IMG/VR virus record: IMGVR_UViG_3300042458_000828
Location: 1-25,143 of that record
Source: a virus
Reading direction: 5' to 3' (one strand)
Length of the DNA stretch: 25,143 nucleotides
Shown: in pieces, positions 1 to 17,691 of the stretch
How positions within the stretch are numbered: the stretch's first letter is position 1
Layout: each line of letters opens with the position of its first letter
Program-made: the position numbers and the translations under genes
Notes under the pieces: generated by a model
Databases searched by the model: none
The model's input: only the letters and a program-made list of their open reading frames with translations
What the model was told of the DNA's origin: nothing

Positions 1-93
1 AAAATATTCATTTACTTCCATTAAAATGCCGTGATCGTCAGACAATAATCTTAATGTAGTTTCATCAACTTTATGTACACGTATATCAGACAT
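1..93 (-). CDS. uvsW: UvsW-type DNA/RNA helicase, N-terminal 31 codons (partial)
   Basis: Only the first 31 codons lie in the window; the gene continues beyond base 1. The peptide opens MSDIRVHKVDETTLRLL and continues to HGILMEVNEYF. This resembles the N-terminal domain of T4-like UvsW, which has a '(I/V)-x-V-x-K-(V/I)-D-E-T' start and an 'E-L-x-x-Y-F' stretch before the helicase core. In T4, UvsW is an ATP-dependent helicase that unwinds R-loops and moves branched DNA during recombination-dependent replication. Its place next to uvsY supports the call. The ATG overlaps the last 8 bases of the preceding homing endonuclease, which sits between uvsY and uvsW. No Shine-Dalgarno sequence is visible. 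The helicase motifs lie outside the window, so the call rests on the short N-terminus and the context. Confidence 0.72.
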   Translation of the reverse strand, partial: MSDIRVHKVDETTLRLLSDDHGILMEVNEYF

Positions 94-847: not shown

Positions 848-851
848 CTAA

Positions 852-1298: not shown

Positions 1299-1322
1299 TG
1301 TTCTAGATTGATTTATATCTTT

Positions 1323-1775
1323 TTAATCTAGGAAATTAAAATTGTCATATTTGAACGTCACATCAATGTATGCATACTCTACATCAGTTGCTTGAGCATT
1401 TAATTCTATACCACTGATGCTGCTGACAAATACAGAATTAAATTGCACGCTGCGCGATACATTAAAATGACTTGTGACAAAGTTTAATACGAGGCTATAT
1501 GTTTCAAGCGATGCTCCTTCACTGTTACGTTTTAGCCAATTGTATAATTCTTCATATACACCTAGCGCTTCATCAACAGCAATGCGTACGCTTAAGTCTC
1601 CATACTGTAGGAATCCGCTGCTAACAAACCCTGCTTTGTTGGAGAAGTTGATGGCAACTTCACTAACGCTTATACTTGGGAAAGACGCTGATACTGCAAG
1701 ACGCTCACACAATGAAAACTGGTCAGTATTAAACTGCATCTTAAACCCAGTCAATGATAATAAATTGGTAGCCAT
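1323..1775 (-). CDS. Probable virion structural protein, tail-tube-like
   Basis: A 150-residue protein between gp23 and uvsY. It begins with a hydrophobic beta strand (LLSLTGFKMQF), followed by 'ERLAVSASFPSISVSEVAINF', 'GDLSVRIAVDEALGVYEELYNWL' and a beta-rich C-terminus. The order 'FPSIS...E...F' then 'L-x-V-x-I-x-V-D-E-x-L-x-x-Y-E-E-L-Y-N-W-L' is the layout of small tail-tube or tail-completion proteins in marine T4-like phages. The gp19 in this window shares it loosely ('TLPASVIG...VPFRGRKLKIAGD...AFENWMNLIN'). Function is inferred from that layout and from the location, so which tail part it forms is open. A late promoter AATAAATA lies 9 bases upstream, and the gp23 terminator hairpin precedes it, so it is probably transcribed separately from gp23. 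Confidence 0.6.
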   Translation of the reverse strand: MATNLLSLTGFKMQFNTDQFSLCERLAVSASFPSISVSEVAINFSNKAGFVSSGFLQYGDLSVRIAVDEALGVYEELYNWLKRNSEGASLETYSLVLNFVTSHFNVSRSVQFNSVFVSSISGIELNAQATDVEYAYIDVTFKYDNFNFLD

Positions 1776-1784
1776 ATTATAAGG

Positions 1785-1792
1785 TATTTATT
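1785..1792 (-). promoter_or_regulatory. Late promoter AATAAATA (T4 type)
   Basis: The minus strand reads AATAAATA, matching the NATAAATA late octamer of T4-like phages, 9 bases before the ATG at 1775. It lies just after the gp23 terminator hairpin, so it would restart transcription for the small structural gene and perhaps uvsY. Confidence 0.55.
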
Positions 1793-1796
1793 AAAG

Positions 1797-1830
1797 TAAA
1801 AAGGTGGGCAACCTTTCGATTGCCCACCTT
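1797..1830 (-). terminator. Rho-independent terminator after gp23
   Basis: A perfect 11-bp inverted repeat (AAGGTGGGCAA / TTGCCCACCTT, 1801-1811 with 1820-1830) has an 8-base loop. On the minus strand it is followed directly by a T run (TTTTTAC). It starts 28 bases after the gp23 stop codon. It probably ends the highly expressed capsid transcript. Confidence 0.85.
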
Positions 1831-1857
1831 ACGATTCCCTAAAGGGATTACTCCAAA

Positions 1858-3327: not shown

Positions 3328-3371
3328 AATAGTTATTTTCTAGGTTGTTGTTTGTTTTTGGGAACCGTGTA

Positions 3372-4478
3372 TCAGCTAGCAATGTTTGCAGTTTGTGCAT
3401 TGTTGAGGCGAGATATTGCGGTTAAATATTGTTTCATACTTGGTGAAAGATCTTCACCAAAGGTTTCGTTTTCGACGATAGTTTCTTTACTGATGTATGA
3501 AGAATCTTCAAATGTTTCTTCTTCAATACTTTGACGGCTATTGATATAAAACTCTTTGAGAGTTTCAATTTTCTTACGGAATGAATCAACATCGACATAT
3601 TCGACATCTTCAGATAACGCTTGCAATTTGGCAACTTGAGTATCAGCAAGATCACGAGTAGTTTCGGCAAGAACATTTGCGCGAGATAGTGTTTCAACTT
3701 TCTCAGCAAGGTTCTCAGCAATACGCTCAAGCTTTGCAGCTTGCTCTTGAGTTTCGCTCAACTTAGTTTCCATTTCAGATACCATATCTGTCTTACCTTC
3801 AGGTACGTCAATATAGTTTTCAACAAATACGCTCTTAAGAGAAGTGATAAAGTTTTCAGCAATCTCAGTACGCAATGTACTTTCAACTGCAACTTTATTG
3901 TCAGCTACCCAGCTTTCAACAGCATACGTTAAATAACCGTCGATCTTTTCGACCAAGTCTTCGTGAATGCTTTCAACTTCTTCTGTCAAACGTGTTGCAT
4001 ATTCTTCCTTAAGTGTTGCTTCAGCTTCAGCAACTTTAGAGCGAACTGCAGTTTCAAAAATAAGCGTTGCTTTTTCTTTGAATTCTTCAGTTAGTCCAAC
4101 TTCGCTTTCAACCAATTGCGCAATGTCACTTGAGTCAACCACAAGTTGTTCTTTAACAACAGGAGTTTCTTCAACTTCTTCATTTTGCTTTTCAATAGCT
4201 GCTGAAATCTTCTTGCGGCGATTCTTTAGATATTCGTCAGTCTCATCAGAATCACCGTCGTTGTCAACGTCGTCATCTTCTTTACCAACTTTATCCATTG
4301 CTTCTTCCATTTCATCAGCATCTTCTTCTTCATCTTCTTCCTCTTCTTCCTTAACTTTAGCTTCAGCGATCTCAGTTGATTCCGCGTCCGCCTCTAAAGT
4401 TTCGTCAAGAGAAAGTAATGTTTCTTCGCTGATATCTTCAATGATATCATCTTCAATTGTTTCTTGTTTTGTTTTCAT
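3372..4478 (-). CDS. 22: Prohead core scaffold protein (gp22)
   Basis: A 368-residue, strongly acidic and helix-rich protein placed between the prohead protease and the capsid gene, exactly where T4-like phages encode gp22. Residues about 40-75 are almost all Glu and Asp (for example KEEEEEDEEEDADEMEE). This stretch is followed by a basic 'KNRRKK' patch and long coiled-coil helices ('METKLSETQEQAAKLERIAE', 'AKLQALSEDVEYVDVDSFRK'). The C-terminus 'SPSMKQYLTAISRL' is of the type found in cyanomyovirus gp22. The protein would form the inner core of the prohead and be degraded by gp21. It is longer than T4 gp22 (269) because of the acidic N-terminal extension. Identification rests on order and composition more than on a motif. 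Confidence 0.88.
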   Translation of the reverse strand: MKTKQETIEDDIIEDISEETLLSLDETLEADAESTEIAEAKVKEEEEEDEEEDADEMEEAMDKVGKEDDDVDNDGDSDETDEYLKNRRKKISAAIEKQNEEVEETPVVKEQLVVDSSDIAQLVESEVGLTEEFKEKATLIFETAVRSKVAEAEATLKEEYATRLTEEVESIHEDLVEKIDGYLTYAVESWVADNKVAVESTLRTEIAENFITSLKSVFVENYIDVPEGKTDMVSEMETKLSETQEQAAKLERIAENLAEKVETLSRANVLAETTRDLADTQVAKLQALSEDVEYVDVDSFRKKIETLKEFYINSRQSIEEETFEDSSYISKETIVENETFGEDLSPSMKQYLTAISRLNNAQTANIAS

Positions 4479-4500
4479 GAGTTATATTACTTTATTTTGT

Positions 4501-5145
4501 TTAGAGTTTGGAGAGGAAATCTTTGAAGATACGTTCCTGAGCTTCAGCCAAATTGGCAGAAGAGGTCTTCTTAATTTCTGTCTCATACATTTCAATTTGT
4601 TGCGGCTTAAGCAGTCCATTATCCCAGATCCATTCTACGCCTTCCATAATGCCGTTCACAAAAGCGGACGGAGCACTTGGATCTTGCACAATATCAACTG
4701 TGGACAACACGAAGTCTTCATTGACAACAGTTTGACCATTCTTGCTTGCAACGGTTCCCATACCACGGCTTGAAACACCCAACTGACATCCGCCTTCCAA
4801 TAGTCCTTTCACAATTTTGCCCATTGGCGTATTCAGGATGAGTGCTTTTCCAACAACATCATTACCATTCCACTTGAGAGCGGTAATGCGATGCGAAACT
4901 TTATCGAGGTTGATAGCAGGGCCTTCTGGGTGATTCAATTCACCAACGGCTCGGCCACGATCAACATAGTCAGTTACATATTTTGCAACTGCACCTTCTA
5001 AAACTGTTTTTGGATACACACGGCGATTACGATTAATCTGCTCAGCCTGCATGAATATCCCTTCAATAACATAGTTCTTACTGCCATCCGCAGCGGACTC
5101 AACTAGATAATTTAAATCTTCTAAGTGTTCGGTAATTAACTTCAT
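4501..5145 (-). CDS. 21: Prohead core protease (gp21)
   Basis: A 214-residue serine protease of the T4 gp21 family. Two catalytic blocks are visible: 'GELNHPEGP' with His72, and 'LGVSSRGMG' with Ser125/126, the usual His and Ser of this herpesvirus-assemblin-like fold. The N-terminal 'NRNRRVYPKTVLEGAV' block is also typical. The enzyme sits in the prohead core and cuts capsid and core proteins after (L/I)-x-E. A late promoter TATAAATA lies 13 bases before the ATG. A 22-base gap separates its stop from the gp22 start, consistent with one head-assembly operon. Confidence 0.95.
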   Translation of the reverse strand: MKLITEHLEDLNYLVESAADGSKNYVIEGIFMQAEQINRNRRVYPKTVLEGAVAKYVTDYVDRGRAVGELNHPEGPAINLDKVSHRITALKWNGNDVVGKALILNTPMGKIVKGLLEGGCQLGVSSRGMGTVASKNGQTVVNEDFVLSTVDIVQDPSAPSAFVNGIMEGVEWIWDNGLLKPQQIEMYETEIKKTSSANLAEAQERIFKDFLSKL

Positions 5146-5158
5146 ATTGATAATAGTT

Positions 5159-5166
5159 TATTTATA
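5159..5166 (-). promoter_or_regulatory. Late promoter TATAAATA before gp21
   Basis: Perfect T4 late octamer on the minus strand, 13 bases before the gp21 ATG at 5145. It would give a short leader of about 8 bases. Confidence 0.7.
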
Positions 5167-5171
5167 CAAAG

Positions 5172-5645
5172 TCAGATTTTATCAAGCACATAGTTTAGTG
5201 CATCATAAACCTTTGGATTGCCTCCATCAGACACGCTAACATTCTTAAACTTTTTTAGCAGCTTTGTATATAGCATGCGAATTTCTTTTACAAATTGTTT
5301 ACCTTCATTATCGCGAGTATCAATTTGAATGATGCGTGAAAGAGCGCGTTTGTCTTCATCATCAAGCGCACGGTAAATTTCGCCTTGTGCTTCACGGAAC
5401 TTTGGGTCATTGCGCTCAAGGTCTAGACCTTGAGCGTAATCAAACTTTTTTGTGTTTTTCGCAATGGCCTCGGTTACAATACTTTCAGTAATTTTTGGTT
5501 GGTCATAAATGCTAGCACTTAGTTCAACCCGCTTAATATCAAGCACGGTCTTGACCTTGTCAATAATCATGCGTTGCATCAAGCCTGCGCTGGTGTTTGT
5601 ATCACCGGTAGCAATGCTTTTGATAAAATTTTTGATGTTACTCAT
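5172..5645 (-). CDS. Prohead core-type protein (gp67/gp68 position)
   Basis: A 157-residue, helix-rich, charged protein between portal gp20 and protease gp21, the place of the small prohead core genes 67 and 68 in T4. The N-terminal block 'FIKSIATGDTNTSAGLMQRM' followed by 'IDKVKTVLDIKRVELSASIYD' fits the short-core-protein pattern of an amphipathic helix, then 'K-x-x-x-x-L-D-x-x-(R/K)-x-E-(V/I)-A-x-x-I/F'. The C-terminal half has a helical 'FREAQGEIYRALDDEDKRAL' segment. No catalytic motif is visible. The role in prohead core assembly is inferred from the location and the N-terminal pattern. Two overlapping late octamers precede it by 5-9 bases. Confidence 0.65.
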   Translation of the reverse strand: MSNIKNFIKSIATGDTNTSAGLMQRMIIDKVKTVLDIKRVELSASIYDQPKITESIVTEAIAKNTKKFDYAQGLDLERNDPKFREAQGEIYRALDDEDKRALSRIIQIDTRDNEGKQFVKEIRMLYTKLLKKFKNVSVSDGGNPKVYDALNYVLDKI

Positions 5646-5677: not shown

Positions 5678-7225
5678 TTAAGCGTCAAAATCTGCAGCAT
5701 CAGTGCCGTCTCCTCCGCCATCTGCTGGAGCATTTGCTTCTGCTTCAGTTGCTTCCAATTTAATTTGTTCATTCATCTTTTCAACCTCATCATCACTTTG
5801 GTTTAGGATGTTTGAACGAACCCATTTTTCACTGTAGTATTTTCCAATTTGACCGCTGATAGTATCCAACATGCCAAGACGTTCTTTCATAATTTCAAAG
5901 TCTTTAAGTTCACTAAAGAAGTTGTCTTCAATATAGTCAACACTGCAGTTTTCACGAATAGCTTCCCAATCGTCTTGAGTAATGATTCCTTTTAAAATCA
6001 ACTGCACCTTAAGCATATCAATGAATAGCGTAGAGAACTTACGGCGCAGACGGTTAATAAACTTTTGAAATTTAACTTCTTCACGGCTAATCTCAGTGCT
6101 ACGGCCAACACTAAACATAGTTTCACTTTCAAGACGGCTGGATGGAACATTCAGTGACTTGTAAAGATTCTTCTTAAAGTAAACAACATCTTCAATTTGA
6201 CTAAGATTTTCACCGCCAGGCAGTGTGGTAATTTCAGTACCCCGCCCACCTTCTCGACGTGGTAACCAAAAGTCTTCAAGCATACTCATGGTCTTGCGAT
6301 CATCGCGTATTTCACCGGTGTTGGCGTCATACATCAGCTTGTTGCGGTACTTGGCCATAATGCCTTGTACATATTCTTCGGCTTTACCTTTTGGAAGGTT
6401 ACCAATATCAATATAGAAAATACGGCGCTCAGGCGCGCGTGCAATACGATAGATGACCAATGCGTCTTCCATCATACGCAGTTGATTTACCAACTTGACT
6501 GCCTTGTGTAGGTAGCTGATACTAACTTTACCATTCTCATCAAGTACACCGCTTGGAACATATACAATAGCATTAGGATCAATCTTTAATCCACTCATAC
6601 CAGAGTTATTATTAAAATCATCGGTATACATAAAGTACTCATCGGTAATTTCACTGGTCTTGATGCCAGTTACTTTATCAATTTTTGTACTAACCTCTTT
6701 AATCTTTTTGATCTTTAGCGGATCAATTTGTTGAATCTCTTTGATGCCATCTTTTGGCTTCTTAGGATCCATAATCAGGTAAAAATATAGGCGTCCGTCA
6801 ATATACCAACGACGAAACAGGTCATAACCCATATAGTTAAATGAAAGCAGCTGAAGAACGCGATTAAATTCTTCATGAATCTTTTTCTTGATGCTTTCAT
6901 TGAGATCAACATTGTCAAGAATTAAACTTACTGGTGCGCCGTCACTGTCACTTACAATAGCGCCATTTACAATTTCTGCAATGGCAGCATCACACTCTGG
7001 TTGAACAGCACTTGCACGATAACGCAAGATAAGATCTTTTTCGTTGTTTAGTGAACCGCCGTCAATATCAAGGATTTGACCATAATAACCAGCAGCACTA
7101 CTTGCGGCACTGATATATGCTGCGCCATCATTTTCAACTGGTAAGGCAAAGCTTTGCAAATTAGATGTGCTATCATCTGCTTCTTTGCCTAAACGCTTAG
7201 TTATTTCAAATCCAAATATCTTCAT
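5678..7225 (-). CDS. 20: Portal vertex protein (gp20)
   Basis: A 515-residue portal protein of the T4 gp20 family. It starts MKIFGFEITKRL, a typical cyanomyovirus-like gp20 start. Family features include 'LRYRASAVQPECDAAIAEIVNGAIV', 'YLIMDPKKPKDGIKEIQQIDP', 'RMMEDALVIYRIARAPERRIFYID', 'EDFWLPRREGGRGTEI' and 'TLPGGENLSQIEDV'. Twelve copies would form the DNA entry channel, dock the gp17 motor and seed prohead assembly. An upstream in-frame ATG at 7255 would add MLLLLLYINY, but that codon lies inside the terminator hairpin, so the ATG at 7225 is preferred. The sequence just upstream (TATATATAAACTATATGAA) is also found at the start of the rightward gene at 20165. Confidence 0.97.
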   Translation of the reverse strand: MKIFGFEITKRLGKEADDSTSNLQSFALPVENDGAAYISAASSAAGYYGQILDIDGGSLNNEKDLILRYRASAVQPECDAAIAEIVNGAIVSDSDGAPVSLILDNVDLNESIKKKIHEEFNRVLQLLSFNYMGYDLFRRWYIDGRLYFYLIMDPKKPKDGIKEIQQIDPLKIKKIKEVSTKIDKVTGIKTSEITDEYFMYTDDFNNNSGMSGLKIDPNAIVYVPSGVLDENGKVSISYLHKAVKLVNQLRMMEDALVIYRIARAPERRIFYIDIGNLPKGKAEEYVQGIMAKYRNKLMYDANTGEIRDDRKTMSMLEDFWLPRREGGRGTEITTLPGGENLSQIEDVVYFKKNLYKSLNVPSSRLESETMFSVGRSTEISREEVKFQKFINRLRRKFSTLFIDMLKVQLILKGIITQDDWEAIRENCSVDYIEDNFFSELKDFEIMKERLGMLDTISGQIGKYYSEKWVRSNILNQSDDEVEKMNEQIKLEATEAEANAPADGGGDGTDAADFDA

Positions 7226-7243
7226 ATAGTTTATATATAATAA

Positions 7244-7275
7244 GAGCAGGAGCATGTATATACATGCTCCTGCTC
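7244..7275 (-). terminator. Perfect 32-nt palindrome between gp19 and gp20
   Basis: A perfect inverted repeat with arms GAGCAGGAGCATGTAT and its complement and no spacer. It lies 19 bases after the gp19 stop and 18 bases before the gp20 start. On the minus strand it is followed by TTATTATATAT, a weak T-rich tail. It is most likely a terminator, an attenuator or an RNA-end stabiliser between the tube and portal transcripts. Confidence 0.7.
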
Positions 7276-7869: not shown

Positions 7870-9984
7870 TTAGGCGCCAACGATTGTTTTAAACTCAACA
7901 CCAGTACGCGTAGCAATGAAGTTAAGCGTAATAAAGTTAATAGAACGAGTTGGCTTGATGTAGATATCAGCAACAAAACGATTGCCATCAACCACATCAC
8001 CGCTATTGTTTGTGGAGTCGCATACAACGCGGAAGTCAGTAATCCCACGTCGACCTTTAACATCACGAAGATAAGGTTCAACCATATTCTTAAATGCTGC
8101 ACGAGTAAAGTCGTCGTTTTGTTCAAACAATTGATATTTACTAGCAGTGCTAATAGATTTCTCAAGAGTAATAAACAAACGGCGAACATTGATGCGATCA
8201 AATGCACTTGGTTTTGCCAAGCGTGTTTTATCACCATACAATACAATACCTTGACCTGGGAATGCGCAAATTGGATTAACTCCAACTTTATAAAGGTCAT
8301 CACGGTCTGCTTGATTTGGATTGTATGCAAGTTTAACTACATCTTGCAATTGACCACGGTTAAAACCAGCTGGGCTAAACCACGCATCAGCAACTTCATC
8401 AGTATTTGCGCATAACCCAGCAATGTGGCCACAAGCAGGAATCCATAGATAGTTATCATTGTACTTGTTGTACACATAAACTGGAGATGAATCCATTACA
8501 ATATAACTGCTAACAGGGCAAGCATTTGTGGTTAACTTGTCAGTTAAGATTGTGCTCTTTTTGGTAGCATCAGTTGTCTTATTAGCAACATCCAACGGCG
8601 CACTTATAAATCCTACGCAATCTTTGCGAGAATTGACAATGGTCGCCAATTTGATATCATTGGTTACCGCAGTTGAGGTAACAGCATGAACTTCACCAAA
8701 CAATAAGTTTACATCAACACTTTGTGCATCGGTAAACAGGTCATATGCTGTGCTCATACCAGTTGCTGTCATTGCAGCATTTGTGCCACTTTCAAGTGTA
8801 ATAATAACACCACCACCTACAGCTGATCGTGCACTTAATTGTGTAGCAACGGTTCCAGCGGAAAACGCGCTACCATCTGTTCTAGTAAATTCAGCTTCAG
8901 TTAACAATGAGGCAGAACCAGCAACAGTAGTATTGCGAGTATACATCAACTTATTGATGTATATGTAATTTGAATTGCGATTAACAACATCACGATAATA
9001 ATTGGTTGCGCCATTATCTGTTTTTGCATCAGTAAAGAGCGAAAGGCCTTCCCATTTTTCAAGAATTGTTCCAGCAGTACCAGTGAATGATCCGTCGCTG
9101 TCAATGACAGCGATGTGAATTTCATCGTTGAATTCTTTAGCGCTCCAACCATTTGCGGTCTGAATTTTTTCTGAATATGAACTTTTTCCAGGAACATACG
9201 AAAAGTAACTAGACATATCATTGCGCTGTGTACCATCAGTTTGACCTGTAGTTGCTGGTGTTAATGCAGTACTACGGCAAAGTACAACGCTTAACGCATT
9301 ACCAAGAACACCTGGATAACGTGCAACAATTGCACTCTTAAGTACTGTGCCACTAACAGTTGCATCAAATACGTCTTTATTGTTAATGCGAGTTGATGTA
9401 ACGGCTGCATACCCGTTTGTTGCAATCGCGCTTACTGCCAATGTACAGCTAGTACCAGTACCACCTGTTGTAACTATACCAGTTGTAGCAGTATAGCCTG
9501 CACCGCTATAAAGAAGAGCAACAGTTGCAACTGGGCCAGTTGCTGCGCCGCCGCTAATAGTTAATACTTGAGCAGTTGCAAGATTTCCTGCTGTACCACC
9601 GCTAAGAGTAAGTATATCACCTACTGCATAACCTGTACCAGCCGCAGTAGGTGCAGCTGTAAGAGTCGTAATTGCACCTGTGGCTTGCCATGGTTTAGTA
9701 GCAGCATTATAATCAGCAGTTTCAACCGAGCGGGAAACTTTAAGATTACTACCATACTTTAAAAAGCTTGCGGCGGTGAAAAAGCTAGCTGTAGTTGAAG
9801 TAGTAACATTATTTGGTGGACCAAAATTTGTTACAAGATCTTTTTCAGAGCTTACAGTAACCAGTTGACCTGCCGGCCCCCAGTTGAAGGATCCTGCATA
9901 ACCACCAACGCTGGTAGCAAGTGCAGGCACAATGTTTGTTAGGTCGATTTCTTTAACTTCGACTCCGGCTGAATATAGGGCCAT
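7870..9984 (-). CDS. 18: Tail sheath protein (gp18) with inserted repeat domain
   Basis: A 704-residue contractile sheath subunit (T4: 659). The N-terminus 'YSAGVEVKEIDLTNIVPALATSVGGYAG' with 'FNWGPAGQ' is the classic gp18 start. The C-terminal half has the conserved 'CAFPGQGIVLYGDKT' and 'RINVRRLFITLEKSI' blocks and ends in 'GRRGITDFRVVCD' and 'PTRSINFITLNFIATRTGVEF', the core that binds neighbours and the tube. Unusual is a Gly/Thr/Ala-rich insert at about residues 101-190 with two 'GxGY' repeats ('GTGYAVGDILTLSGGT' and 'YSGAGYTATTGIVTTGGTGT'). It would be exposed on the sheath surface (inference). A late promoter lies 60 bases upstream, between gp17 and gp18. Confidence 0.96.
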   Translation of the reverse strand: MALYSAGVEVKEIDLTNIVPALATSVGGYAGSFNWGPAGQLVTVSSEKDLVTNFGPPNNVTTSTTASFFTAASFLKYGSNLKVSRSVETADYNAATKPWQATGAITTLTAAPTAAGTGYAVGDILTLSGGTAGNLATAQVLTISGGAATGPVATVALLYSGAGYTATTGIVTTGGTGTSCTLAVSAIATNGYAAVTSTRINNKDVFDATVSGTVLKSAIVARYPGVLGNALSVVLCRSTALTPATTGQTDGTQRNDMSSYFSYVPGKSSYSEKIQTANGWSAKEFNDEIHIAVIDSDGSFTGTAGTILEKWEGLSLFTDAKTDNGATNYYRDVVNRNSNYIYINKLMYTRNTTVAGSASLLTEAEFTRTDGSAFSAGTVATQLSARSAVGGGVIITLESGTNAAMTATGMSTAYDLFTDAQSVDVNLLFGEVHAVTSTAVTNDIKLATIVNSRKDCVGFISAPLDVANKTTDATKKSTILTDKLTTNACPVSSYIVMDSSPVYVYNKYNDNYLWIPACGHIAGLCANTDEVADAWFSPAGFNRGQLQDVVKLAYNPNQADRDDLYKVGVNPICAFPGQGIVLYGDKTRLAKPSAFDRINVRRLFITLEKSISTASKYQLFEQNDDFTRAAFKNMVEPYLRDVKGRRGITDFRVVCDSTNNSGDVVDGNRFVADIYIKPTRSINFITLNFIATRTGVEFKTIVGA

Positions 9985-10044
9985 ATTTTTTTATTTCTCA
10001 GTTGTTATAATAAGTTGTCATAATAAGAAGGCTTTCAATAATCC

Positions 10045-10052
10045 TATTTATA
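10045..10052 (-). promoter_or_regulatory. Late promoter TATAAATA before gp18
   Basis: Perfect late octamer on the minus strand in the 80-base gap between the last terminase fragment and gp18, 60 bases before the gp18 ATG. Confidence 0.75.
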
Positions 10053-10064
10053 AAATACGACATT

Positions 10065-11177
10065 TTACAGGCTATCCCATTCACGGTTTTGTGTCAATGC
10101 TTCTTGATAGTATTGTGAACTTTCTGGAGCATCAGATCCATAGTTATTTATGACGCCAAATAATGGAACATCTTCATCCATTTCACGTATCTTTTCACTA
10201 TATAAGAGTTGTTTAAGATCAACATTACTGATACCACCAAATGCTTCAGTACTAACAAACCATGAAAACATAACAAGGTTCATTACCAAGTCATCATGCG
10301 TACTTCCGCGTGCAGCATAACTATCACCTTTTGGCTCAAAGCTGCTCAACTCGGCAATAGCATCTATGTCGCATACTTCCAGCTTTCCATTCTCAATCAA
10401 GTCTTTAAGATTGCTGCAGCCAATACGTTTAACGCGTTTTGTCATCATGACGCCAATACCATTGCTCTTGACCGCGCTTGATACAAACATATTATCATAT
10501 TCATATTCATAATATACAGCATTACATACAACCTGTCCAGCGTCATTGTTTTCTATGACTACCATTGCATTATTATATTGCTTTGCAGCTCGCACAATAA
10601 GTTCTGGATATATCAATGGACTTATAAGATTATCACGATAAGTACACACGGTTTTAAATGGCATACTGCTAACATTAAAAACAGTAAATGTGCTATAGTC
10701 TTGCCCACGGCCTTTGCTAACATCAACCGTCATAATATAGTCATGCGCTTCAATAGGATCATCATAATAGCGTATACCATATTGACGTTTATTTGGTTCA
10801 ATACCTTTTAGACCTAATAGCGCTTCACTACTAATTAGAGTTGCGCTACTTCCAATAAAGTCACAGTTATGTGAAATAATATCGCCATCATGATAAAAAC
10901 AATGAGTATCCGATACGCCAACCGGATCGTATAATTCAATTTCTTTATTAAAAAATTCAATATGAAACACTGTAAAACCGTCACTTAAGATGTCATTTAT
11001 AACCAATTCGGTTGCAACCTTTTGCAGCCCATTAATAATAAATTTATGATTTAAAGAACAATTTATACTCTTTCCTGTATATGATATTATTTGAAGATAT
11101 TCTTTATGAATAGTTTTCCTAACACCACTAAATTTAACATATTGGTCATTACTATTTTTAATTAAAATATCATTCAT
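10065..11177 (-). CDS. 17: Large terminase fragment 3: C-intein 2 plus nuclease domain
   Basis: A 370-residue protein made of two parts. Residues 1-104 are a C-terminal split intein half ending DIISHN. Residues 105-370 are the nuclease half of a T4 gp17-type terminase, starting CDFIGSSATLIS. The nuclease acidic residues are visible: Asp in 'MTVDVSKGRGQDYST' (near residue 151), Glu in 'VVIENNDAGQVV', and 'THDDLVMNLVMF' near the end. T4 gp17 has the same three blocks. On its own the fragment lacks the ATPase, so it must be joined in trans to the middle fragment to give a working packaging motor. The start codon overlaps the endonuclease stop (ATGA) and no Shine-Dalgarno sequence is visible, so translation is probably coupled. 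Confidence 0.93.
   Translation of the reverse strand: MNDILIKNSNDQYVKFSGVRKTIHKEYLQIISYTGKSINCSLNHKFIINGLQKVATELVINDILSDGFTVFHIEFFNKEIELYDPVGVSDTHCFYHDGDIISHNCDFIGSSATLISSEALLGLKGIEPNKRQYGIRYYDDPIEAHDYIMTVDVSKGRGQDYSTFTVFNVSSMPFKTVCTYRDNLISPLIYPELIVRAAKQYNNAMVVIENNDAGQVVCNAVYYEYEYDNMFVSSAVKSNGIGVMMTKRVKRIGCSNLKDLIENGKLEVCDIDAIAELSSFEPKGDSYAARGSTHDDLVMNLVMFSWFVSTEAFGGISNVDLKQLLYSEKIREMDEDVPLFGVINNYGSDAPESSQYYQEALTQNREWDSL
10866..11177 (-). other. Split intein 2, C-terminal half (104 aa)
   Basis: This covers residues 1-104 of fragment 3. It contains an intein block-B-like 'CSLNHKF', a block-F pattern 'ELYDPVGVSDTHCFYHDG' and the block-G ending 'IISHN' followed by Cys, the +1 splice nucleophile. 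The same size and layout (about 104 residues, 'LYDP-x-x-V', 'SHN/C-x-F-x-G-S') are known from the atypically split AceL-TerL intein of a metagenomic terminase, recalled from the literature. Block A is absent here and is supplied by the N-half at 11781-11882. Confidence 0.9.
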
Positions 11178-11809
11178 AGATTTTTTACATATTCATAGAT
11201 CATATTTTCGCATATAGGCAATTCTTTTGCCATATACCTAGCATATAATCTACTTTTAGTTAATACCCGACCATTTTTAGCTTTTAATCCAATTTGGTCA
11301 TTAACAAATTCATAATAGCCTTGTATAATTTTTTGTATATCTTCATCGGTTAATTTACTCCATGTCTTTTTTCCTTTTTTTGCTAAAGATATTTTTTCCT
11401 TTATAGATGGGTCCTTAGCAAAGAATGCCTTACTCCTTTCAGACCGTATATTAAAACCTTCAGCTGCTGCCCTATTTTTAGCGGCGTCTGACATTTTCTT
11501 TTTAGCTTCATCGCTAAATTTGTAACCAAATGTTGAAAAATTTGATGAATTGTGTCCATGCCCCTTTCCTCCCTGTGTGGAATTTAGACCATTACGAAAT
11601 GTGTCTAAATTAATAATAGCCATTTCTTCAGCCTCTTCAATATCTTTTCTACTTTCTGATTCAAGTAAAATTTCATATGTAAATGAATGTCCATTAAATC
11701 TTTTACTGTGTGCATGCTGAGCCATTCTATTCTTAATACGATAATCAATAGTAATACCTACATATTGATTTCCATCATCACGAGTTATGCAGTATAGGAT
11801 ATGTTTCAT
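11174..11809 (-). CDS. GIY-YIG homing endonuclease in terminase break 2
   Basis: A 211-residue GIY-YIG enzyme. The core is 'LYCITRDDGNQYVGITIDYR' at residues 5-24, with Y6 and Y16-V-G-I as the GIY/YIG pair, an Arg in the following helix, and a Glu-rich helix 'IEEAEEMAII' that holds the metal-binding Glu. C-terminal segments are NUMOD3-like DNA-binding repeats ('FSDEAKKKMSDAAKNRAA', 'KEKISLAKKGKK') and a helix-turn-helix-like end ('LTKSRLYARYMAKELPICEN'). Its first 32 bases overlap the N-intein of fragment 2 in another frame, and its stop overlaps fragment 3 by ATGA. A TATAAATA promoter sits 33 bases upstream, inside the N-intein. It probably cuts intein-free terminase genes and so copies the split intein into them. 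Confidence 0.9.
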   Translation of the reverse strand: MKHILYCITRDDGNQYVGITIDYRIKNRMAQHAHSKRFNGHSFTYEILLESESRKDIEEAEEMAIINLDTFRNGLNSTQGGKGHGHNSSNFSTFGYKFSDEAKKKMSDAAKNRAAAEGFNIRSERSKAFFAKDPSIKEKISLAKKGKKTWSKLTDEDIQKIIQGYYEFVNDQIGLKAKNGRVLTKSRLYARYMAKELPICENMIYEYVKNL

Positions 11810-12470
11810 AGAGATTCTTAAGTTTGATTTTGATTTTATTATTATTTATAATAACATTAACTTCAGAATCACCGTCTAAACATTCAAACTCTTGGTTAAA
11901 CTGCAATTCACTGCTGTTGGCAATAGTTTGCTTTTTCCATGCTTCATCACGCCCAGGTACATCACTCCATTTGATTGTGAATGGTTTAAATTCACTTGTC
12001 TTTTGTACCGCGCCTTCCCATAAGCGATAAAACATATTGCCTACACCATTAGGAGTACTTGTAATGATTACCTTGGTATCTTTACCAGATGAAATAACAG
12101 GATAGGTACTTGTATAAAACTCATTAGCATTTTGCACGAATGCAAATTCGTCAAGGAAAATACAGTTATGGCTAATCAATCCATTTGTATAATATGCATG
12201 AGTATCTTTAACATTTAGCAAATCATAGACAGATTCATTGGCAATTTCATCTATACTTTCTATGCGGATATTTGCGTAAAGTATATCTCCAATTTGTAAA
12301 AATCTTGCAGGGATATATGTTTCGCCATCATCCATTAAAAGTTCATGGTCAGGTGTACATTTAATACTCCTATCATCGGTACATACAATACACAGTAAAC
12401 TGTCTGAAGTACCTTTATTTAGTATTCCATCAAATTGCTTAAACCCTTTATGTGTTAATACCTCAATCAT
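11778..12470 (-). CDS. 17: Large terminase fragment 2: C-intein 1, Walker B segment, N-intein 2
   Basis: A 230-residue protein of three parts. Residues 1-102 are a C-intein half ending LISHN. Residues 103-196 are a terminase segment beginning CIFLDEFAFV, the Walker B motif with Asp107-Glu108. This segment carries the coupling motif 'IITSTPNG' (about 136-142) and ends 'QFNQEFE'. Residues 197-230 are an N-intein half beginning CLDGDS. The middle piece of the terminase is therefore flanked by intein halves of opposite polarity and needs two trans-splicing events, one at each end. In uninterrupted T4-like gp17 the joins read '...RG-x-S-x-N/x-I-F-L-D-E' and '...QEFE/C-x-F-x-G-(S/T)'. The start overlaps the previous stop (ATGA). 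The N-intein end overlaps the start of the next endonuclease. Confidence 0.93.
   Translation of the reverse strand: MIEVLTHKGFKQFDGILNKGTSDSLLCIVCTDDRSIKCTPDHELLMDDGETYIPARFLQIGDILYANIRIESIDEIANESVYDLLNVKDTHAYYTNGLISHNCIFLDEFAFVQNANEFYTSTYPVISSGKDTKVIITSTPNGVGNMFYRLWEGAVQKTSEFKPFTIKWSDVPGRDEAWKKQTIANSSELQFNQEFECLDGDSEVNVIINNNKIKIKLKNLYETYPILHNS
11781..11882 (-). other. Split intein 2, N-terminal half (34 aa)
   Basis: This covers residues 197-230 of fragment 2. It begins with Cys1 in 'CLDGDSEV' (block A: C-x-x-G-D-S/T), then 'KIKIKLKNLYET', and ends at a stop 34 residues later. It is far shorter than canonical split N-inteins of about 90-120 residues, because block B has moved to the C-half. 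It pairs with the C-half at 10866-11177. The preceding residues, EFE, and the +1 Cys of fragment 3 define the splice join. Confidence 0.9.
11843..11850 (-). promoter_or_regulatory. Late promoter TATAAATA inside N-intein 2
   Basis: A perfect late octamer on the minus strand, within the codons for Ile-Ile-Asn of N-intein 2 and 33 bases before the endonuclease ATG at 11809. It would let the endonuclease and terminase fragment 3 be transcribed without the upstream fragments. The A/T-rich codons could produce it by chance. Confidence 0.5.
12165..12470 (-). other. Split intein 1, C-terminal half (102 aa)
   Basis: This covers residues 1-102 of fragment 2. It contains block B 'CTPDHELLM' (T-x-x-H), 'ARFLQIGDIL', block F 'VYDLLNVKDTHAYYTNG' and block G 'LISHN' followed by Cys103 of the terminase. 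The penultimate His and the terminal Asn needed for splicing are present. Block A is missing and is provided by the N-half at 13409-13510, making this an atypical split. Confidence 0.92.
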
Positions 12471-13408
12471 TTCTTAGTTGTATTAACCCATCCAGCTGGT
12501 GCTTCATGCGGAAAGTAATATCCTCTTTTGGATGCATCAGATGGATCGGTAAAGTATTTCTTACCTTTATTTTTAGCAATCATTCCTTTTTTAGCAAGTG
12601 ACATTTTATCTTTAGATTCTGCACTGCGTTTCATACCGCGATGCTTTTCAGCCGTCTTACGTATCTTTTCTGGATTATGATTTATTTTTGAGACATGATC
12701 TATACTCTTTTTCATACCAGTCAACGCTTTACTAATCTTTTCACCAAACCCGTCTGGCTTAGACATACCTTTTAATTTTTGCGATACAATACGACCATTA
12801 GCTTTTCGTGTTTCAGGTAAAGCTTCTATCATTTGGTTTCTTTTATGATAAAATTCTTCGGCCGCAGATTGAATATCAGGCAATTCATACTGTATATTAC
12901 CATTAGGATTTCCGCATTCATAAATTACTTTTACTCGTGCAGCGTGTGCATTGCAATCTTTAAGATAGCCCAATTCATATATTGCATCTTCTACGGTATG
13001 GAATATTCTTCCATCGGTATGAACTATCTTATAACCATTTCCACTATGCAATCCGGTTTTTTGTTTACTTAATTTTTCACGGGTTTCTTTACTATGTGTC
13101 TTTCCATAAAATCCATTATTTTCGCCATGAAGTACACAAATATTACCTCCAACTGATAGATTATAAGTATCTTCTCTTAAAGTAAAGTCGCGATCAACAA
13201 TTCTTTTTTCTTCGGCCTCAGCTTCTTCTTTAGTATTGTATACAGCTAAGATTTCTTTATTAAACCGGTCAACTCCATATTTTTCAACAGCTCTTCTTAT
13301 CAGTTTACCTGATCCCATATATCCATCATCTATGTTGTGTGTAGAATGATAACCCACATAGATTTTACCATTAACTTTATTGGTAATTTTATAAACAGTA
13401 TAATACAT
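12467..13408 (-). CDS. GIY-YIG homing endonuclease 1, possible internal translation start
   Basis: A 313-residue product would arise from the in-frame ATG at 13408. This ATG has a GAGGA Shine-Dalgarno sequence 4 bases upstream and a TATAAATA late promoter 23 bases upstream, both inside the N-intein codons. The GIY-YIG core is 'YYTVYKITNKVNGKIYVGYH' (full-frame residues 207-226), followed by 'NIDDGYMGSGKLI' and a Glu-rich helix 'EEAEAEEKRIV'. NUMOD3-type repeats follow ('GFYGKTHSKETREKLSKQKT', 'GEKISKALTGMKKS', 'HRGMKRSAESKDKMSLAKKG'). A C-terminal 'F-T-D-P...A-P-A-G-W-V' module resembles the 'P-D-G-W' module of the uvsY-uvsW endonuclease. It may be made both fused to the intein and alone, an inference from the initiation signals. 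Confidence 0.8.
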   Translation of the reverse strand: MYYTVYKITNKVNGKIYVGYHSTHNIDDGYMGSGKLIRRAVEKYGVDRFNKEILAVYNTKEEAEAEEKRIVDRDFTLREDTYNLSVGGNICVLHGENNGFYGKTHSKETREKLSKQKTGLHSGNGYKIVHTDGRIFHTVEDAIYELGYLKDCNAHAARVKVIYECGNPNGNIQYELPDIQSAAEEFYHKRNQMIEALPETRKANGRIVSQKLKGMSKPDGFGEKISKALTGMKKSIDHVSKINHNPEKIRKTAEKHRGMKRSAESKDKMSLAKKGMIAKNKGKKYFTDPSDASKRGYYFPHEAPAGWVNTTKK

Positions 13409-14023
13409 ATGTTCCTCGATGAGTTTACTTTTATTTATATAATCATCTATTTTAACATAGTAAATTGCATCATTTTCATATATACAAATTTTGGTATCAC
13501 CTGTCACACAATTCATACTCAAACCACGAATACTGCTACCGCTTGTTGCCGCTGCAATAATTTGGCTGTTGTTGCTAAACTTGATACTGCCTTTGTTCAA
13601 TACCTTACACCCAGGCTGCAAAAAGAATGGCAGGTTTTCCAACATTAGTGTTAAACGGCTCAACATCTCACGTGCAGTTGCACCTTTGTTTGCTAGCATA
13701 CCAATTGTTTTATCTGGATTAAATATGACATAGTGCAGGAGCCATGCCACACTTGTTATACTTTTACCGCTTTGACGACAGGCTAGCACAATGTTGAAAC
13801 GATTGTCCGTAAAGTGTTGCACCATCTTTTCCTGATAACCACGCAGCTTAAAAGGAACAAGCCCATGATCCAAGTGAATAACCTTTACATACTGCTCACA
13901 AAAATAACCAACATCGGCCATGCAACGTTGATATTCAACAATCTCATGCGCCGTAAAGTTTTGCTGCACGCCATCGCCCTTCACGTGCGGGTTGCCATTG
14001 TAGGCATTTGGATGACTAGACAT
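12467..14023 (-). CDS. 17: Large terminase fragment 1: ATPase N-part, N-intein 1, fused GIY-YIG endonuclease
   Basis: A 518-residue reading frame. Residues 1-171 are the N-terminal ATPase part of T4 gp17-type terminase, with 'PFKLRGYQEKMVQHF' (adenine-binding region), Walker A 'CRQSGKS' at 82-88, and 'SGSSIRGLSMN' just before the break. Residues 172-205 are an N-intein half beginning CVTGDT. With no stop codon between, residues 206-518 continue as a GIY-YIG homing endonuclease. The protein is thus terminase, N-intein and nuclease in one chain. Trans-splicing with fragment 2 would free the terminase part and leave the intein half joined to the endonuclease. No Shine-Dalgarno sequence is seen, and the start is nested in AATAAATA repeats. 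The stop overlaps fragment 2 (ATGA). Confidence 0.93.
   Translation of the reverse strand: MSSHPNAYNGNPHVKGDGVQQNFTAHEIVEYQRCMADVGYFCEQYVKVIHLDHGLVPFKLRGYQEKMVQHFTDNRFNIVLACRQSGKSITSVAWLLHYVIFNPDKTIGMLANKGATAREMLSRLTLMLENLPFFLQPGCKVLNKGSIKFSNNSQIIAAATSGSSIRGLSMNCVTGDTKICIYENDAIYYVKIDDYINKSKLIEEHMYYTVYKITNKVNGKIYVGYHSTHNIDDGYMGSGKLIRRAVEKYGVDRFNKEILAVYNTKEEAEAEEKRIVDRDFTLREDTYNLSVGGNICVLHGENNGFYGKTHSKETREKLSKQKTGLHSGNGYKIVHTDGRIFHTVEDAIYELGYLKDCNAHAARVKVIYECGNPNGNIQYELPDIQSAAEEFYHKRNQMIEALPETRKANGRIVSQKLKGMSKPDGFGEKISKALTGMKKSIDHVSKINHNPEKIRKTAEKHRGMKRSAESKDKMSLAKKGMIAKNKGKKYFTDPSDASKRGYYFPHEAPAGWVNTTKK
13413..13417 (-). promoter_or_regulatory. Shine-Dalgarno GAGGA for internal endonuclease start
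   Basis: GAGGA is 4 bases before the in-frame ATG at 13408. It is notable because most starts in this window show no Shine-Dalgarno sequence. The same bases encode Glu-Glu at the end of N-intein 1. Confidence 0.55.
13432..13439 (-). promoter_or_regulatory. Late promoter TATAAATA inside N-intein 1
   Basis: A perfect late octamer on the minus strand within the codons for Tyr-Ile-Asn of N-intein 1. It lies 23 bases before the endonuclease ATG, with the GAGGA Shine-Dalgarno between them, so a normal short leader would result. Confidence 0.6.
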
Positions 14024-14034
14024 ATTTATTTATT
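14023..14034 (-). promoter_or_regulatory. Overlapping AATAAATA octamers at the gp17 start
   Basis: The minus strand reads AATAAATAAATA running into the gp17 ATG. The upstream octamer (14034-14027) is only 3 bases from the start, and the second includes the A of ATG. If used as late promoters they would start RNA inside the gene, so they may simply be an A-rich translation leader. Confidence 0.3.
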
Positions 14035-14110
14035 TTTACCTTTACAAGTTTGCAGAACCCTGTTACAATTGATTTAGATCAAACCGCTAATGGCAATCTA
14101 ATTATATATT

Positions 14111-14145
14111 GGTTTGACCGAAGGCTCCCGAAGGGATGGTCAAAC
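14111..14145 (-). terminator. Hairpin overlapping the gp16 stop
   Basis: An 8-bp stem GTTTGACC/GGTCAAAC (14138-14145 with 14112-14119) encloses a smaller CCC-TTCG-GGA hairpin. The gp16 TGA lies in the stem. An A/T-rich stretch (AATATATAATTAG) follows, not a clean T run. It may reduce read-through from gp16 to gp17 or act in RNA processing. Confidence 0.45.
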
Positions 14146-14613
14146 ATCAACTGTTGTTTCACTTTGACTTTTAAGGAACTTCTGCAATTCGGTGGTTGTT
14201 CCAACAAAGATACTGTTGTTTGTGGTATTAGACCCAACGCTAACACTTTTTGGTGCAGTAGGTTCAATGACAAGTTTCTTGCGGTCGCGTTGCAATGTTA
14301 GCAATTGATTGTTCATATCAGCCGCACTCTTTATCATACCAGCTAGCACTTCAAATGCACGTGGATGTTCGGCATCAGCTGCAAGAGCATGCATTGTTGC
14401 TATTGCTTCATCGCTTGTGCCAATAAGTTTCTTGATATGATCACGTGCAAAACGATAGTCTTCCTCTACATCAACGCTAATGTCATCAACACTTGGTAAC
14501 TTTTCTTTTACAGCTATCTGATTGTTTTCTACAGTAGCTATAGCAACTACAGGTAAATTTGTTTGTAATGAATCAAGTATATCTTGACGCGTCTTTGCTG
14601 GTTTAAGGCTCAT
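14140..14613 (-). CDS. 16: Small terminase subunit (gp16)
   Basis: A 157-residue protein between gp15 and gp17, the position and size of T4 gp16 (164). The central region 'DVEEDYRFARDHIKKLIGTSDEAI' with 'AADAEHPRAFEVLAGMIKSAADMNNQLLTL' is the two-helix oligomerisation core seen in T4-like small terminases ('D-Y-x-x-(A/V)-R-x-x-x-x-x-L-I...HPRAFEV'). It would form a ring that recognises phage DNA and regulates the gp17 motor. The ends are low in conservation, as usual in this family. No promoter octamer was seen upstream, so it is probably read from the neck-gene transcript. Confidence 0.92.
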   Translation of the reverse strand: MSLKPAKTRQDILDSLQTNLPVVAIATVENNQIAVKEKLPSVDDISVDVEEDYRFARDHIKKLIGTSDEAIATMHALAADAEHPRAFEVLAGMIKSAADMNNQLLTLQRDRKKLVIEPTAPKSVSVGSNTTNNSIFVGTTTELQKFLKSQSETTVDV

Positions 14614-16334: not shown

Positions 16335-16928
16335 TTAAATCAGTCCTTTCTTTTTATCCCAATATAATTTACGGGCAGCAGACATCTTATCTTTTACTTC
16401 TTGTGATTTTGGAACGCCTAAGCATTTGCCTTTTCTATTCTTAGACATTTTTTGCCGAGTTTCCTCTGATGCTTTTTTTCCAAAATTTTCATTAAGAATA
16501 CCTAATCTAGTTTTACGAAATTCACTAAGTTTTTTTCTAGACTCATCTGATTTTCCTGGATTATTTTCTAAATTTCTTTTTGTAAGATCTGGTCTTTTAT
16601 TTCCAGTATTACCTTTACTTATTTTTGCTTTAGTTATTTCAGTATGTCCTTTACATACAAATTTACAACTGCCATTATGTTGATTATAATAATCTTTATT
16701 ATGCATTGCATCAACAGCTTTTAATATAGTTACTTCTAATTTTATCATTTGATCTGTGGTGCCACGAGAAATTATATATCGTTCAAACACAGAAGGATCT
16801 TTATGGTATTCTTCTAATACCAGTTTACTTGAACATATATATCCATCATCTATATTACCTTTATGCCAACCGATGTATAACCGATTAGTTTTAACATTTC
16901 TTAAACTATAAACAAATGCTTCAAACAT
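16335..16928 (-). CDS. GIY-YIG homing endonuclease between gp13 and gp14
   Basis: A 197-residue protein starting at ATG 16928 (MFEAFVYSLRNVKTNRLYIG). The frame is open further upstream, but that part would overlap gp13 and lacks conservation, and the GIY-YIG domain begins at this Met. The core 'FVYSLRNVKTNRLYIGWHKG' is a GIY-YIG pair, followed by 'NIDDGYICSSKLV', which matches 'NIDDGYMGSGKLI' of the terminase endonuclease 1. The C-terminus holds NUMOD3-type repeats ('GKSDESRKKLSEFRKTR', 'GKKASEETRQKMSKNRKGK', 'KSQEVKDKMSAARKLYWDKK'), which bind DNA. It lies 16 bases after gp13 with no promoter octamer or Shine-Dalgarno of its own. Confidence 0.9.
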   Translation of the reverse strand: MFEAFVYSLRNVKTNRLYIGWHKGNIDDGYICSSKLVLEEYHKDPSVFERYIISRGTTDQMIKLEVTILKAVDAMHNKDYYNQHNGSCKFVCKGHTEITKAKISKGNTGNKRPDLTKRNLENNPGKSDESRKKLSEFRKTRLGILNENFGKKASEETRQKMSKNRKGKCLGVPKSQEVKDKMSAARKLYWDKKKGLI

Positions 16929-16944
16929 AATTAAACATTTTCTA

Positions 16945-17691
16945 CTAACCGCAGTAAAAATCTGGCGGGAACTGATAACGCGATTCAAAGTCTTCTTCAA
17001 TCTTTTGAATCTCAGCATTAGCATCGTCAAATAGAGCACGCCCATTTAGTGTAACACCGCCTGGCAACTGCATACCTTCAAATTTCAACAAGTTGGTTCC
17101 CCACTGACGTTTCAATAATGCAGTGGTATAACGCTTAAGTACCATATCATTGTATACATCACCAAATGCATTTGGATCAATGGTTTGATATGCTTCAACG
17201 ATAATATATTGCCCAGGCTTAAGCGTATGTTTCCAATCGTCATCAATGGTCAAACGATTCATATGGCGTGCAAATGTAATTTGTTGACTTGCACCAGTAA
17301 GAATCATTTCAAGCAGACCCATATATTCTTTGGTCATCTGATAACTAATAATACTTTCTGGTCTGCGAAGCCCATACAAGTCATTAAGATACATCTGATA
17401 CTTAACGCTAAACATATCGCTTGCATCACCACGATTGATATTCATTACGCGCAGCACACAAATCAAACTGTCTGGCAATGTAAAGTAACCGTTATTAAAA
17501 TCATCCTGTGTAATGACATGCTTATAGAATACACGTGTCACGCCATCATTGTGATATTCTTGATAGAATTGAATAGCCTCATCAAGGCGGTCTTCAATCT
17601 GATCGTCATCAATGTTTATTTCAAGCACAGGAGCGCCCAATGCTCGTAGGCAATAGTCAACCAATCCTTGTCGTGTAGTAGGGCGCGCCAT
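16945..17691 (-). CDS. 13: Neck protein (gp13)
   Basis: A 248-residue neck (head completion) protein of the gp13 family. Blocks shared with cyanomyovirus gp13 are 'GLVDYCLRALGAPVLEINID', 'DQIEDRLDEAIQFYQEYHND', 'MNRLTIDDDW', 'YTTALLKRQWGTNLLKFEGM' and 'LPGGVTLNGRALFDDA', ending 'FPPDFYCG'. It works with gp14 to seal the head after packaging and hold the tail. TATAAATA lies exactly 6 bases before the ATG, leaving almost no mRNA leader. It is shorter than T4 gp13 (309) but of normal size for marine relatives. Confidence 0.95.
   Translation of the reverse strand: MARPTTRQGLVDYCLRALGAPVLEINIDDDQIEDRLDEAIQFYQEYHNDGVTRVFYKHVITQDDFNNGYFTLPDSLICVLRVMNINRGDASDMFSVKYQMYLNDLYGLRRPESIISYQMTKEYMGLLEMILTGASQQITFARHMNRLTIDDDWKHTLKPGQYIIVEAYQTIDPNAFGDVYNDMVLKRYTTALLKRQWGTNLLKFEGMQLPGGVTLNGRALFDDANAEIQKIEEDFESRYQFPPDFYCG

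What the first reader, a model, noticed from the sequence alone, without database searches (positions are those of the whole stretch)
10065..14023. Large terminase split into three genes by two atypically split inteins
Seen: gp17 is encoded as three frames. Fragment 1 stops being terminase at ...RGLSMN. Fragment 2 supplies CIFLDEFAFV...NQEFE. Fragment 3 supplies CDFIGSSATLIS onwards. Each break is flanked by an N-intein half (CVTGDT, CLDGDS) and a C-intein half ending SHN before Cys. Joined pieces give 171+94+266 = 531 residues with Walker A, Walker B, coupling motif and nuclease acids all present. Known: fractured genes with split inteins have been described in phage metagenomes, and one terminase split intein of this atypical type (AceL-TerL) has been studied. 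Inferred: two orthogonal trans-splicing reactions are needed to build one motor protein, so DNA packaging depends on both. Two such splits in one gene is the strongest candidate here for an undescribed arrangement.
Basis: partly seen in the sequence, partly recalled or inferred. Interest (0 to 1): 0.95.

Follow-up and report, generated by a model that had tools for sequence, protein, structure and literature searches.

The report
Phage packaging motor gene in three pieces
A T4-like phage encodes its DNA-packaging motor as three separate proteins that two different self-splicing elements (split inteins) most likely stitch into one chain; close relatives with neither, one or the other element show how it arose, and at least eleven other virus lineages carry comparable double breaks.

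Summary
TerL (gp17) is encoded as three chains: ExtA-IntN1 (fused in frame to a GIY-YIG homing endonuclease), IntC1-ExtB-IntN2, and IntC2-ExtC, with a second GIY-YIG gene between the last two. The joined exteins give 531 residues that align without gaps to an intact 531-residue TerL in a relative (L006). Both IntCs match CatC, the solved consensus TerL split intein. Related contigs supply all four allele states: none (L006), intein 1 only (L005/L004/L011), intein 2 only (L278), both (window). Contiguous 132-133 aa homologues of intein 1 exist in other phages, so the two halves make one whole intein. Intein halves and endonucleases are under purifying selection. The best reading is two successive homing invasions and two trans-splicing reactions. 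Splicing itself was not tested.

It is not unique: 13 viral contigs (12 lineages, window included) carry at least two split inteins in TerL; one, L286, has the same site pair. Split TerL inteins and a two-intein (cis) TerL are published. The middle chain has the order IntC-extein-IntN, which would circularise if the two inteins cross-reacted, so they should be orthogonal. New variant of a known kind.

The parts
13511..14023 (-). ExtA: TerL residues 1-171, with Walker A (CRQSGKS), ending ...RGLSMN
   Evidence: Pfam Terminase_6N; 98% identical to ExtA of intein-free L006
13409..13510 (-). IntN1, 34 aa, CVTGDTKICIYENDAIYYVKIDDYINKSKLIEEH, Cys1
   Evidence: Collinear with the N part of contiguous mini-inteins at the same site in L131/L145/L157; no amino-acid change against L005
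12467..13408 (-). HEG1, GIY-YIG/NUMOD3 homing endonuclease, in frame with ExtA-IntN1; internal ATG at 13406-13408 with GAGGA upstream
   Evidence: Pfam GIY-YIG, NUMOD3, SegE; dN/dS 0.05-0.06 against L005/L004; ATG conserved in most relatives, GAGGA only in the closest
12165..12470 (-). IntC1, 102 aa, ends GLISHN; its ATG overlaps the HEG1 stop (ATGA)
   Evidence: PDB 6dsl_B CatC E=2e-11; TIGR01443; ATGA overlap shared by eight contigs at this site, window included
11883..12164 (-). ExtB: TerL residues 172-265, with Walker B (CIFLDEF) and coupling motif (TSTPN)
   Evidence: Pfam Terminase_6N 99-211; T4 gp17 250-351
11778..11882 (-). IntN2, 34 aa plus stop, CLDGDSEVNVIINNNKIKIKLKNLYETYPILHNS
   Evidence: Close relative at the same TerL site in L278, a phage with no intein at site a
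11174..11809 (-). HEG2, free-standing GIY-YIG/NUMOD3 endonuclease, overlaps the IntN2 frame and the IntC2 start
   Evidence: Pfam, PHROG 314; 77% identical to the HEG in L278; dN/dS 0.10
10866..11177 (-). IntC2, 104 aa, ends DIISHN
   Evidence: PDB 6dsl_B CatC E=2.5e-6 alone, 3e-7 within ORF3; TIGR01443; 67% identical to L278 IntC
10065..10865 (-). ExtC: TerL residues 266-531, nuclease domain
   Evidence: Pfam Terminase_6C E=3e-15; T4 gp17 352-561

Best explanation
The phage's terL gene was invaded twice, independently, by homing cassettes of the atypical TerL split-intein family (short IntN + GIY-YIG endonuclease + long IntC): at site a, four residues before the Walker B DE, and at site b, at the end of the ATPase domain. 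The operon makes three chains through overlapping start and stop codons. IntN1 pairs with IntC1 and IntN2 with IntC2; each pair excises itself, leaving a Cys at the joint, and the result is one 531-residue motor-nuclease. Walker A, Walker B and the nuclease lie on three different chains, so no unspliced chain has a full ATPase site. Shown: anatomy, allele series, purifying selection, family membership of the intein halves. Inferred: splicing, orthogonality, homing activity.
For: Exact junctions and gap-free intact relatives. Four allele states: L006/L007 none, L004/L005/L011 a only, L278 b only, window both. The match to L004 across the gene is interrupted only by intein 2. Both IntCs match CatC in the PDB. 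Contiguous 132-133 aa homologues of intein 1 at the same site, 47-54% identical; the fold of one is predicted at pLDDT 93.7 and matches VidaL, NpuDnaB and gp41-1 inteins. The +1 codon is Val (GTT/GTC) in empty alleles of the clade and Cys (TGT) at both occupied sites. dN/dS: IntN1 0-0.05, HEG1 0.05-0.06, IntC1 0.14-0.29, IntN2 0.20, IntC2 0.17, HEG2 0.10. IntCs cluster by site (8 label changes, shuffled mean 50.8). In Campylobacter phage NCTC12673 a related TerL intein joins halves about 26 kb apart, so one intact gene is not needed there.
Against: No splicing experiment. The a+b combination is seen on one contig of this clade plus a distant one (L286). The 34-aa IntN pieces alone find no convincing solved relative. 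Cross-reaction between short-fragment inteins is documented (PMC7090010; GOS/AceL fragments are interchangeable, PMC11766414). Lower synonymous divergence in the intein-1 cassette, expected after recent homing, was tested and was not significant (Fisher p=0.21). Only 25 kb of the genome are known.
Confidence: 0.88

Rival explanations
1. Gene in pieces without splicing: the three chains assemble non-covalently into a working motor and the intein halves are decaying remnants.
For: A phage ribonucleotide reductase split by a homing endonuclease works as two separate peptides (cited in PMC10448857).
Against: All splice-site residues are present; intein halves are under purifying selection; Val of the empty sites is Cys at both joints; Walker A and B would sit on different chains, each with a 34-102 aa appendage or more.
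Confidence: 0.06
2. Assembly or sequencing artefact: a chimera or frameshifts broke an ordinary terL.
For: A single metagenomic contig has this exact pair in its clade; raw reads are not available.
Against: Each element occurs alone in independent contigs at the same codon (L005, L004, L011, L278); a chimera would need breakpoints exact to the base on both sides; every frame is open and conserved.
Confidence: 0.02
3. The two inteins are not orthogonal: IntC1 and IntN2 on the middle chain cross-react, circularising ExtB, or IntN1 and IntC2 give ExtA-ExtC, so functional TerL is made inefficiently and the double state is a transient, costly allele.
For: The middle chain has the IntC-extein-IntN order used for protein circularisation (established knowledge); short-IntN inteins are the most prone to cross-talk (PMC7090010); only one a+b contig in this clade.
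Against: IntN1/IntN2 15% and IntC1/IntC2 31% identical; double-split TerLs recur in 12 lineages; low dN/dS.
Confidence: 0.1
4. The breaks are removed at RNA level by group I or II introns.
For: GIY-YIG endonucleases often sit in introns; terL introns exist in ICP1 (PMC10448857) and IBB_35 (PMC3322345).
Against: No Rfam match up to E=1 over 9900-14200; both insertion ends code for intein splice motifs.
Confidence: 0.01

Closest known systems
AceL-TerL / GOS-TerL / Cat split inteins
   Same: TerL host gene, IntN of 25-37 aa, IntC of about 104-115 aa, Cys+1; IntC1 and IntC2 both match CatC (6dsl); split after the first helix, the S2 position (PMC13014065, PMC11766414)
   Different: Two in one gene, at two sites; IntN1 fused in frame to an endonuclease
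Fractured genes (Dassa et al. 2009, NAR 37:2560; not held, known here from citations and memory)
   Same: Conserved phage gene broken by a split intein with an endonuclease gene in between
   Different: Broken into three; endonuclease 1 is not free-standing; GIY-YIG type
Aeromonas phage PX29 genes 17A/17B
   Same: T4-like TerL split at or within a codon of site b, annotated as N-intein and C-intein
   Different: Single split; GIY-YIG fused to the IntC side
Cyanophage Mic1 TerL (PMC7156551) and Vibrio phage VP-1 TerL
   Same: Two inteins in one terminase
   Different: Mic1: both contiguous. VP-1: one contiguous after Walker A, one split at site b
Viral contig L286 (IMGVR_UViG_3300022468_000384)
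   Same: Split inteins at both a and b, IntN(a) fused to a GIY-YIG endonuclease
   Different: Distant TerL (37-57% by segment); only 464 nt at site b, with no endonuclease ORF beside IntC

Membership tests
Atypical (short-IntN, S2-split) TerL split inteins | IntN of about 15-37 aa and IntC of about 100-115 aa on separate chains | tested here: met
   34/102 and 34/104 aa; IntN1 then continues in frame into HEG1, a deviation
Atypical (short-IntN, S2-split) TerL split inteins | Sequence homology to AceL/GOS/Cat | tested here: met
   6dsl_B CatC E=2e-11 (IntC1) and 2.5e-6 (IntC2)
Atypical (short-IntN, S2-split) TerL split inteins | Cys1, block B His, terminal His-Asn, Cys+1 | tested here: met
   CTPDH / CSLNH...SHN|C in both
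Atypical (short-IntN, S2-split) TerL split inteins | Split right after the first alpha helix | tested here: met
   Seam of intein 1 aligns just after helix 22-28 of the modelled contiguous homologue L131; intein 2 by alignment
Atypical (short-IntN, S2-split) TerL split inteins | Trans-splicing activity | not testable with these tools
   Needs expression
Fractured gene with split intein and endonuclease | Free-standing endonuclease gene between the two halves | tested here: inconclusive
   Met for intein 2 (HEG2); not strictly for intein 1, whose HEG is in frame with IntN1, although it has its own ATG
T4-type TerL (gp17) | ATPase and RNase H-like nuclease domains with catalytic motifs | tested here: met
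   Terminase_6N split over ORF1/ORF2, Terminase_6C in ORF3; gp17 structures matched
GIY-YIG homing endonucleases | GIY-YIG domain with NUMOD3 DNA-binding motifs | tested here: met
   Both above Pfam cut-offs
GIY-YIG homing endonucleases | Cleavage of the empty terL allele | not testable with these tools
   Needs a cleavage assay on L006-type DNA

The most novel reading that the evidence does not exclude
Environmental T4-like phages keep a motor gene that must be assembled from three chains by two mutually orthogonal natural trans-splicing reactions, with a middle chain in the circularising order IntC-extein-IntN; selection against self-circularisation has kept co-resident inteins orthogonal, making TerL sites W, a, a' and b a natural library of compatible split inteins.
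Probability: 0.5. Interest if true: 0.75.

Novelty: new variant of a known kind. Interest (0 to 1): 0.62.

Why it matters
It points to natural three-chain assembly of an essential motor by two split inteins, in a clade that also preserves the none, a-only and b-only states, so the history and the cost of stacking trans-splicing elements can be tested directly. The middle chain's IntC-extein-IntN order makes orthogonality a condition of survival, which suggests that co-resident TerL inteins are ready-made compatible pairs for joining three or more protein pieces. The recurrence in 12 lineages marks TerL as a hot spot where inteins pile up, and standard annotation would score such genes as broken or unknown.

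Tried and rejected
Homing signal by synonymous divergence: lower in the intein-1 cassette, but at fourfold sites not significant (p=0.21), so not used. Similarity of co-resident inteins: cross-site pairs within a contig are no more alike than between contigs (IntC 0.115 against 0.141, p=0.036; IntN p=0.17; confounded by site mix), so there is no sign that one intein was copied into the other site, and no clear proof of selection for divergence. Short IntN searches against the PDB found nothing convincing. RNA intron: no Rfam hit. The multi-species alignment A1 was too diverse for a collection scan, so IUPAC junction patterns were used instead. L137 (stop in Walker A) and L145 (shortened IntC frame at W, near-copy of L131) were left out of the double-split count. 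Papers by Dassa 2009, Bachmann 2015 and Stevens 2018 are not held, so an earlier mention of a double-split gene cannot be ruled out.

Full report
What is there. The window is a 25,143-bp virus contig carrying the late block of a T4-like phage on the minus strand: terminase small subunit 14140-14613, TerL, tail sheath 7870-9984, portal 5678-7255 and major head protein 1858-3327, all recognised by PHROGs. The closest isolates by major head protein are only 52-53% identical (Methylophilales phage Melnitz, Synechococcus phages), so the phage is far from anything cultured.

TerL is encoded by three ORFs. ORF1 (518 aa) holds ExtA (171 aa), IntN1 (34 aa) and, in the same frame, a GIY-YIG/NUMOD3 endonuclease (HEG1, 313 aa). 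ORF2 (230 aa) holds IntC1 (102 aa), ExtB (94 aa) and IntN2 (34 aa). A separate ORF of 211 aa is a second GIY-YIG endonuclease (HEG2). ORF3 (370 aa) holds IntC2 (104 aa) and ExtC (266 aa). The HEG1 stop and IntC1 start overlap as ATGA (12467-12470), as do the HEG2 stop and IntC2 start (11174-11177); HEG2 starts inside the IntN2 frame. The IntC1 ATGA overlap is shared by eight contigs at this site, window included, which suggests coupled translation (inference). Domain searches place Terminase_6N across ORF1 and ORF2, Terminase_6C in ORF3, and intein domains at the right places.

Are the junctions right? Close relatives settle this better than T4 does. L006 and L007 have an uninterrupted TerL 90-98% identical by segment, with no gap at either junction...SMN|VIFLDEF... 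and ...QEFE|V.FIG.... L004, L005 and L011 carry intein 1 alone, at the same codon, with an uninterrupted site b. L278 carries intein 2 and a 77%-identical HEG2 alone, with an uninterrupted site a. The window has both. So all four states exist, and at both sites the +1 codon differs from the empty state: GTT/GTC (Val) in empty alleles of this clade, TGT (Cys) when occupied in the window. Val is therefore Cys in the mature protein, once inside the Walker B strand. The contig is collinear with L004, L005 and L006 on both sides, and between window and L004 only intein 2 interrupts the match across the gene. A chimera is very unlikely.

Are these working inteins? Both IntCs match CatC, the solved consensus of atypical TerL inteins (6dsl_B; E=2e-11 for IntC1; 2.5e-6 for IntC2). 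Cys1, block-B His, terminal His-Asn and Cys+1 are all present. Contiguous mini-inteins of 132-133 aa, 47-54% identical to IntN1+IntC1 and at the same TerL site, exist in L131, L145, L150 and L157: the two halves make one whole. AlphaFold models the L131 form at pLDDT 93.7, and Foldseek returns VidaL, NpuDnaB and gp41-1 inteins. The seam of the split form falls just after the first helix, the S2 position that PMC13014065 gives for AceL and GOS TerL. dN/dS is 0-0.05 for IntN1, 0.05-0.06 for HEG1, 0.14-0.29 for IntC1, 0.20 for IntN2, 0.17 for IntC2 and 0.10 for HEG2: none looks like a relic.

How it most likely works. Three chains are made from one operon. IntN1 with IntC1 joins ExtA to ExtB, IntN2 with IntC2 joins ExtB to ExtC, and 531 residues result. 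Walker A is on chain 1, Walker B and the coupling motif on chain 2, the nuclease on chain 3, so an ATPase site cannot form within any single chain. After splicing, IntN1 leaves attached to HEG1; HEG1 may also be made from its own ATG (GAGGA upstream in the window, L004 and L005; weaker elsewhere). If IntC1 accepted IntN2, ExtB would close on itself; if IntN1 met IntC2, a 437-residue TerL without ExtB would form. The two inteins should therefore be orthogonal. They are 15% (IntN) and 31% (IntC) identical, but short-fragment inteins are those that cross-react most (PMC7090010), and AceL/GOS TerL fragments can be exchanged (PMC11766414), so this must be measured. A test for extra divergence between co-resident inteins was inconclusive.

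How unusual is it? Inteins sit at four main sites: after Walker A (W), before Walker B (a), just after Walker B (a') and at the end of the ATPase domain (b). After inspection, thirteen contigs in twelve lineages, the window included, have two or more split inteins: W+a in L042, L141, L154, L160; W+b in L210, L220, L272, L281; W+b with a third, contiguous intein in L131 and L222; W+a' with two contiguous inteins, four in all, in L118; a+b in L286 and the window. These counts come from a sample chosen for a or b inteins and are not prevalences. IntCs group by site rather than at random (8 changes, shuffled mean 50.8), as expected if each site has its own homing lineages. In this sample the IntN at site a is fused in frame to a long downstream frame, mostly an endonuclease, in 14 contigs, so that feature is common at the site.

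Known background. Split TerL inteins are established (AceL, GOS, Cat; PMC11766414, PMC13014065). PX29 is annotated as 17A/17B with N- and C-intein. Mic1 has two contiguous inteins in TerL (PMC7156551); Campylobacter phage IBB_35 has an intein plus an intron in terL (PMC3322345). In Campylobacter phage NCTC12673 a related intein just after Walker B joins TerL halves about 26 kb apart: in a cultured phage, one intact gene is not needed. No held paper found here describes a natural gene broken by two split inteins, but the key 2009-2018 papers are not held.

Verdict. The rarity claim fails: the arrangement is a recurring variant of a known kind. What is new here is the complete allele series, the recurrence, and the circularisation problem set by the middle chain.

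Noticed in passing
L292 3501-4829 and L295 1441-2157 (Campylobacter phage NCTC12673, GU296433): TerL halves joined by a split intein just after Walker B lie about 26 kb apart; 44 Campylobacter phage records match the IntC query. The C-terminal piece carries no annotated gene in GU296433.
   Followed up: partly
L118 (IMGVR_UViG_3300044971_004217) 499-5368: A TerL with four inteins: Walker A split, before Walker B contiguous, after Walker B split, end of ATPase domain contiguous.
   Followed up: partly
L222 (IMGVR_UViG_3300029286_000707): TerL with split inteins at Walker A and site b plus a large contiguous intein, LAGLIDADG-like by its look (not searched), inserted near the coupling motif.
   Followed up: partly
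L045 470-1680: Site-a intein whose reading frame is open throughout, while an HNH-like endonuclease is encoded in the +1 frame inside it: an endonuclease overprinted on a contiguous intein.
   Followed up: no
L083 6264-7400: Site-a split intein fused in frame to an HNH-like endonuclease instead of GIY-YIG, with IntC ending SHQ instead of SHN: endonuclease swap at the same site.
   Followed up: no
window 16335-17045, minus strand: Free-standing GIY-YIG/NUMOD3-type endonuclease overlapping the end of the gene 16945-17691; a third endonuclease of this family in the window.
   Followed up: partly
window 86-847, minus strand: 253-aa ORF downstream of the major head gene with no significant Pfam, NCBIfam or PHROG match; unassigned.
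   Followed up: no
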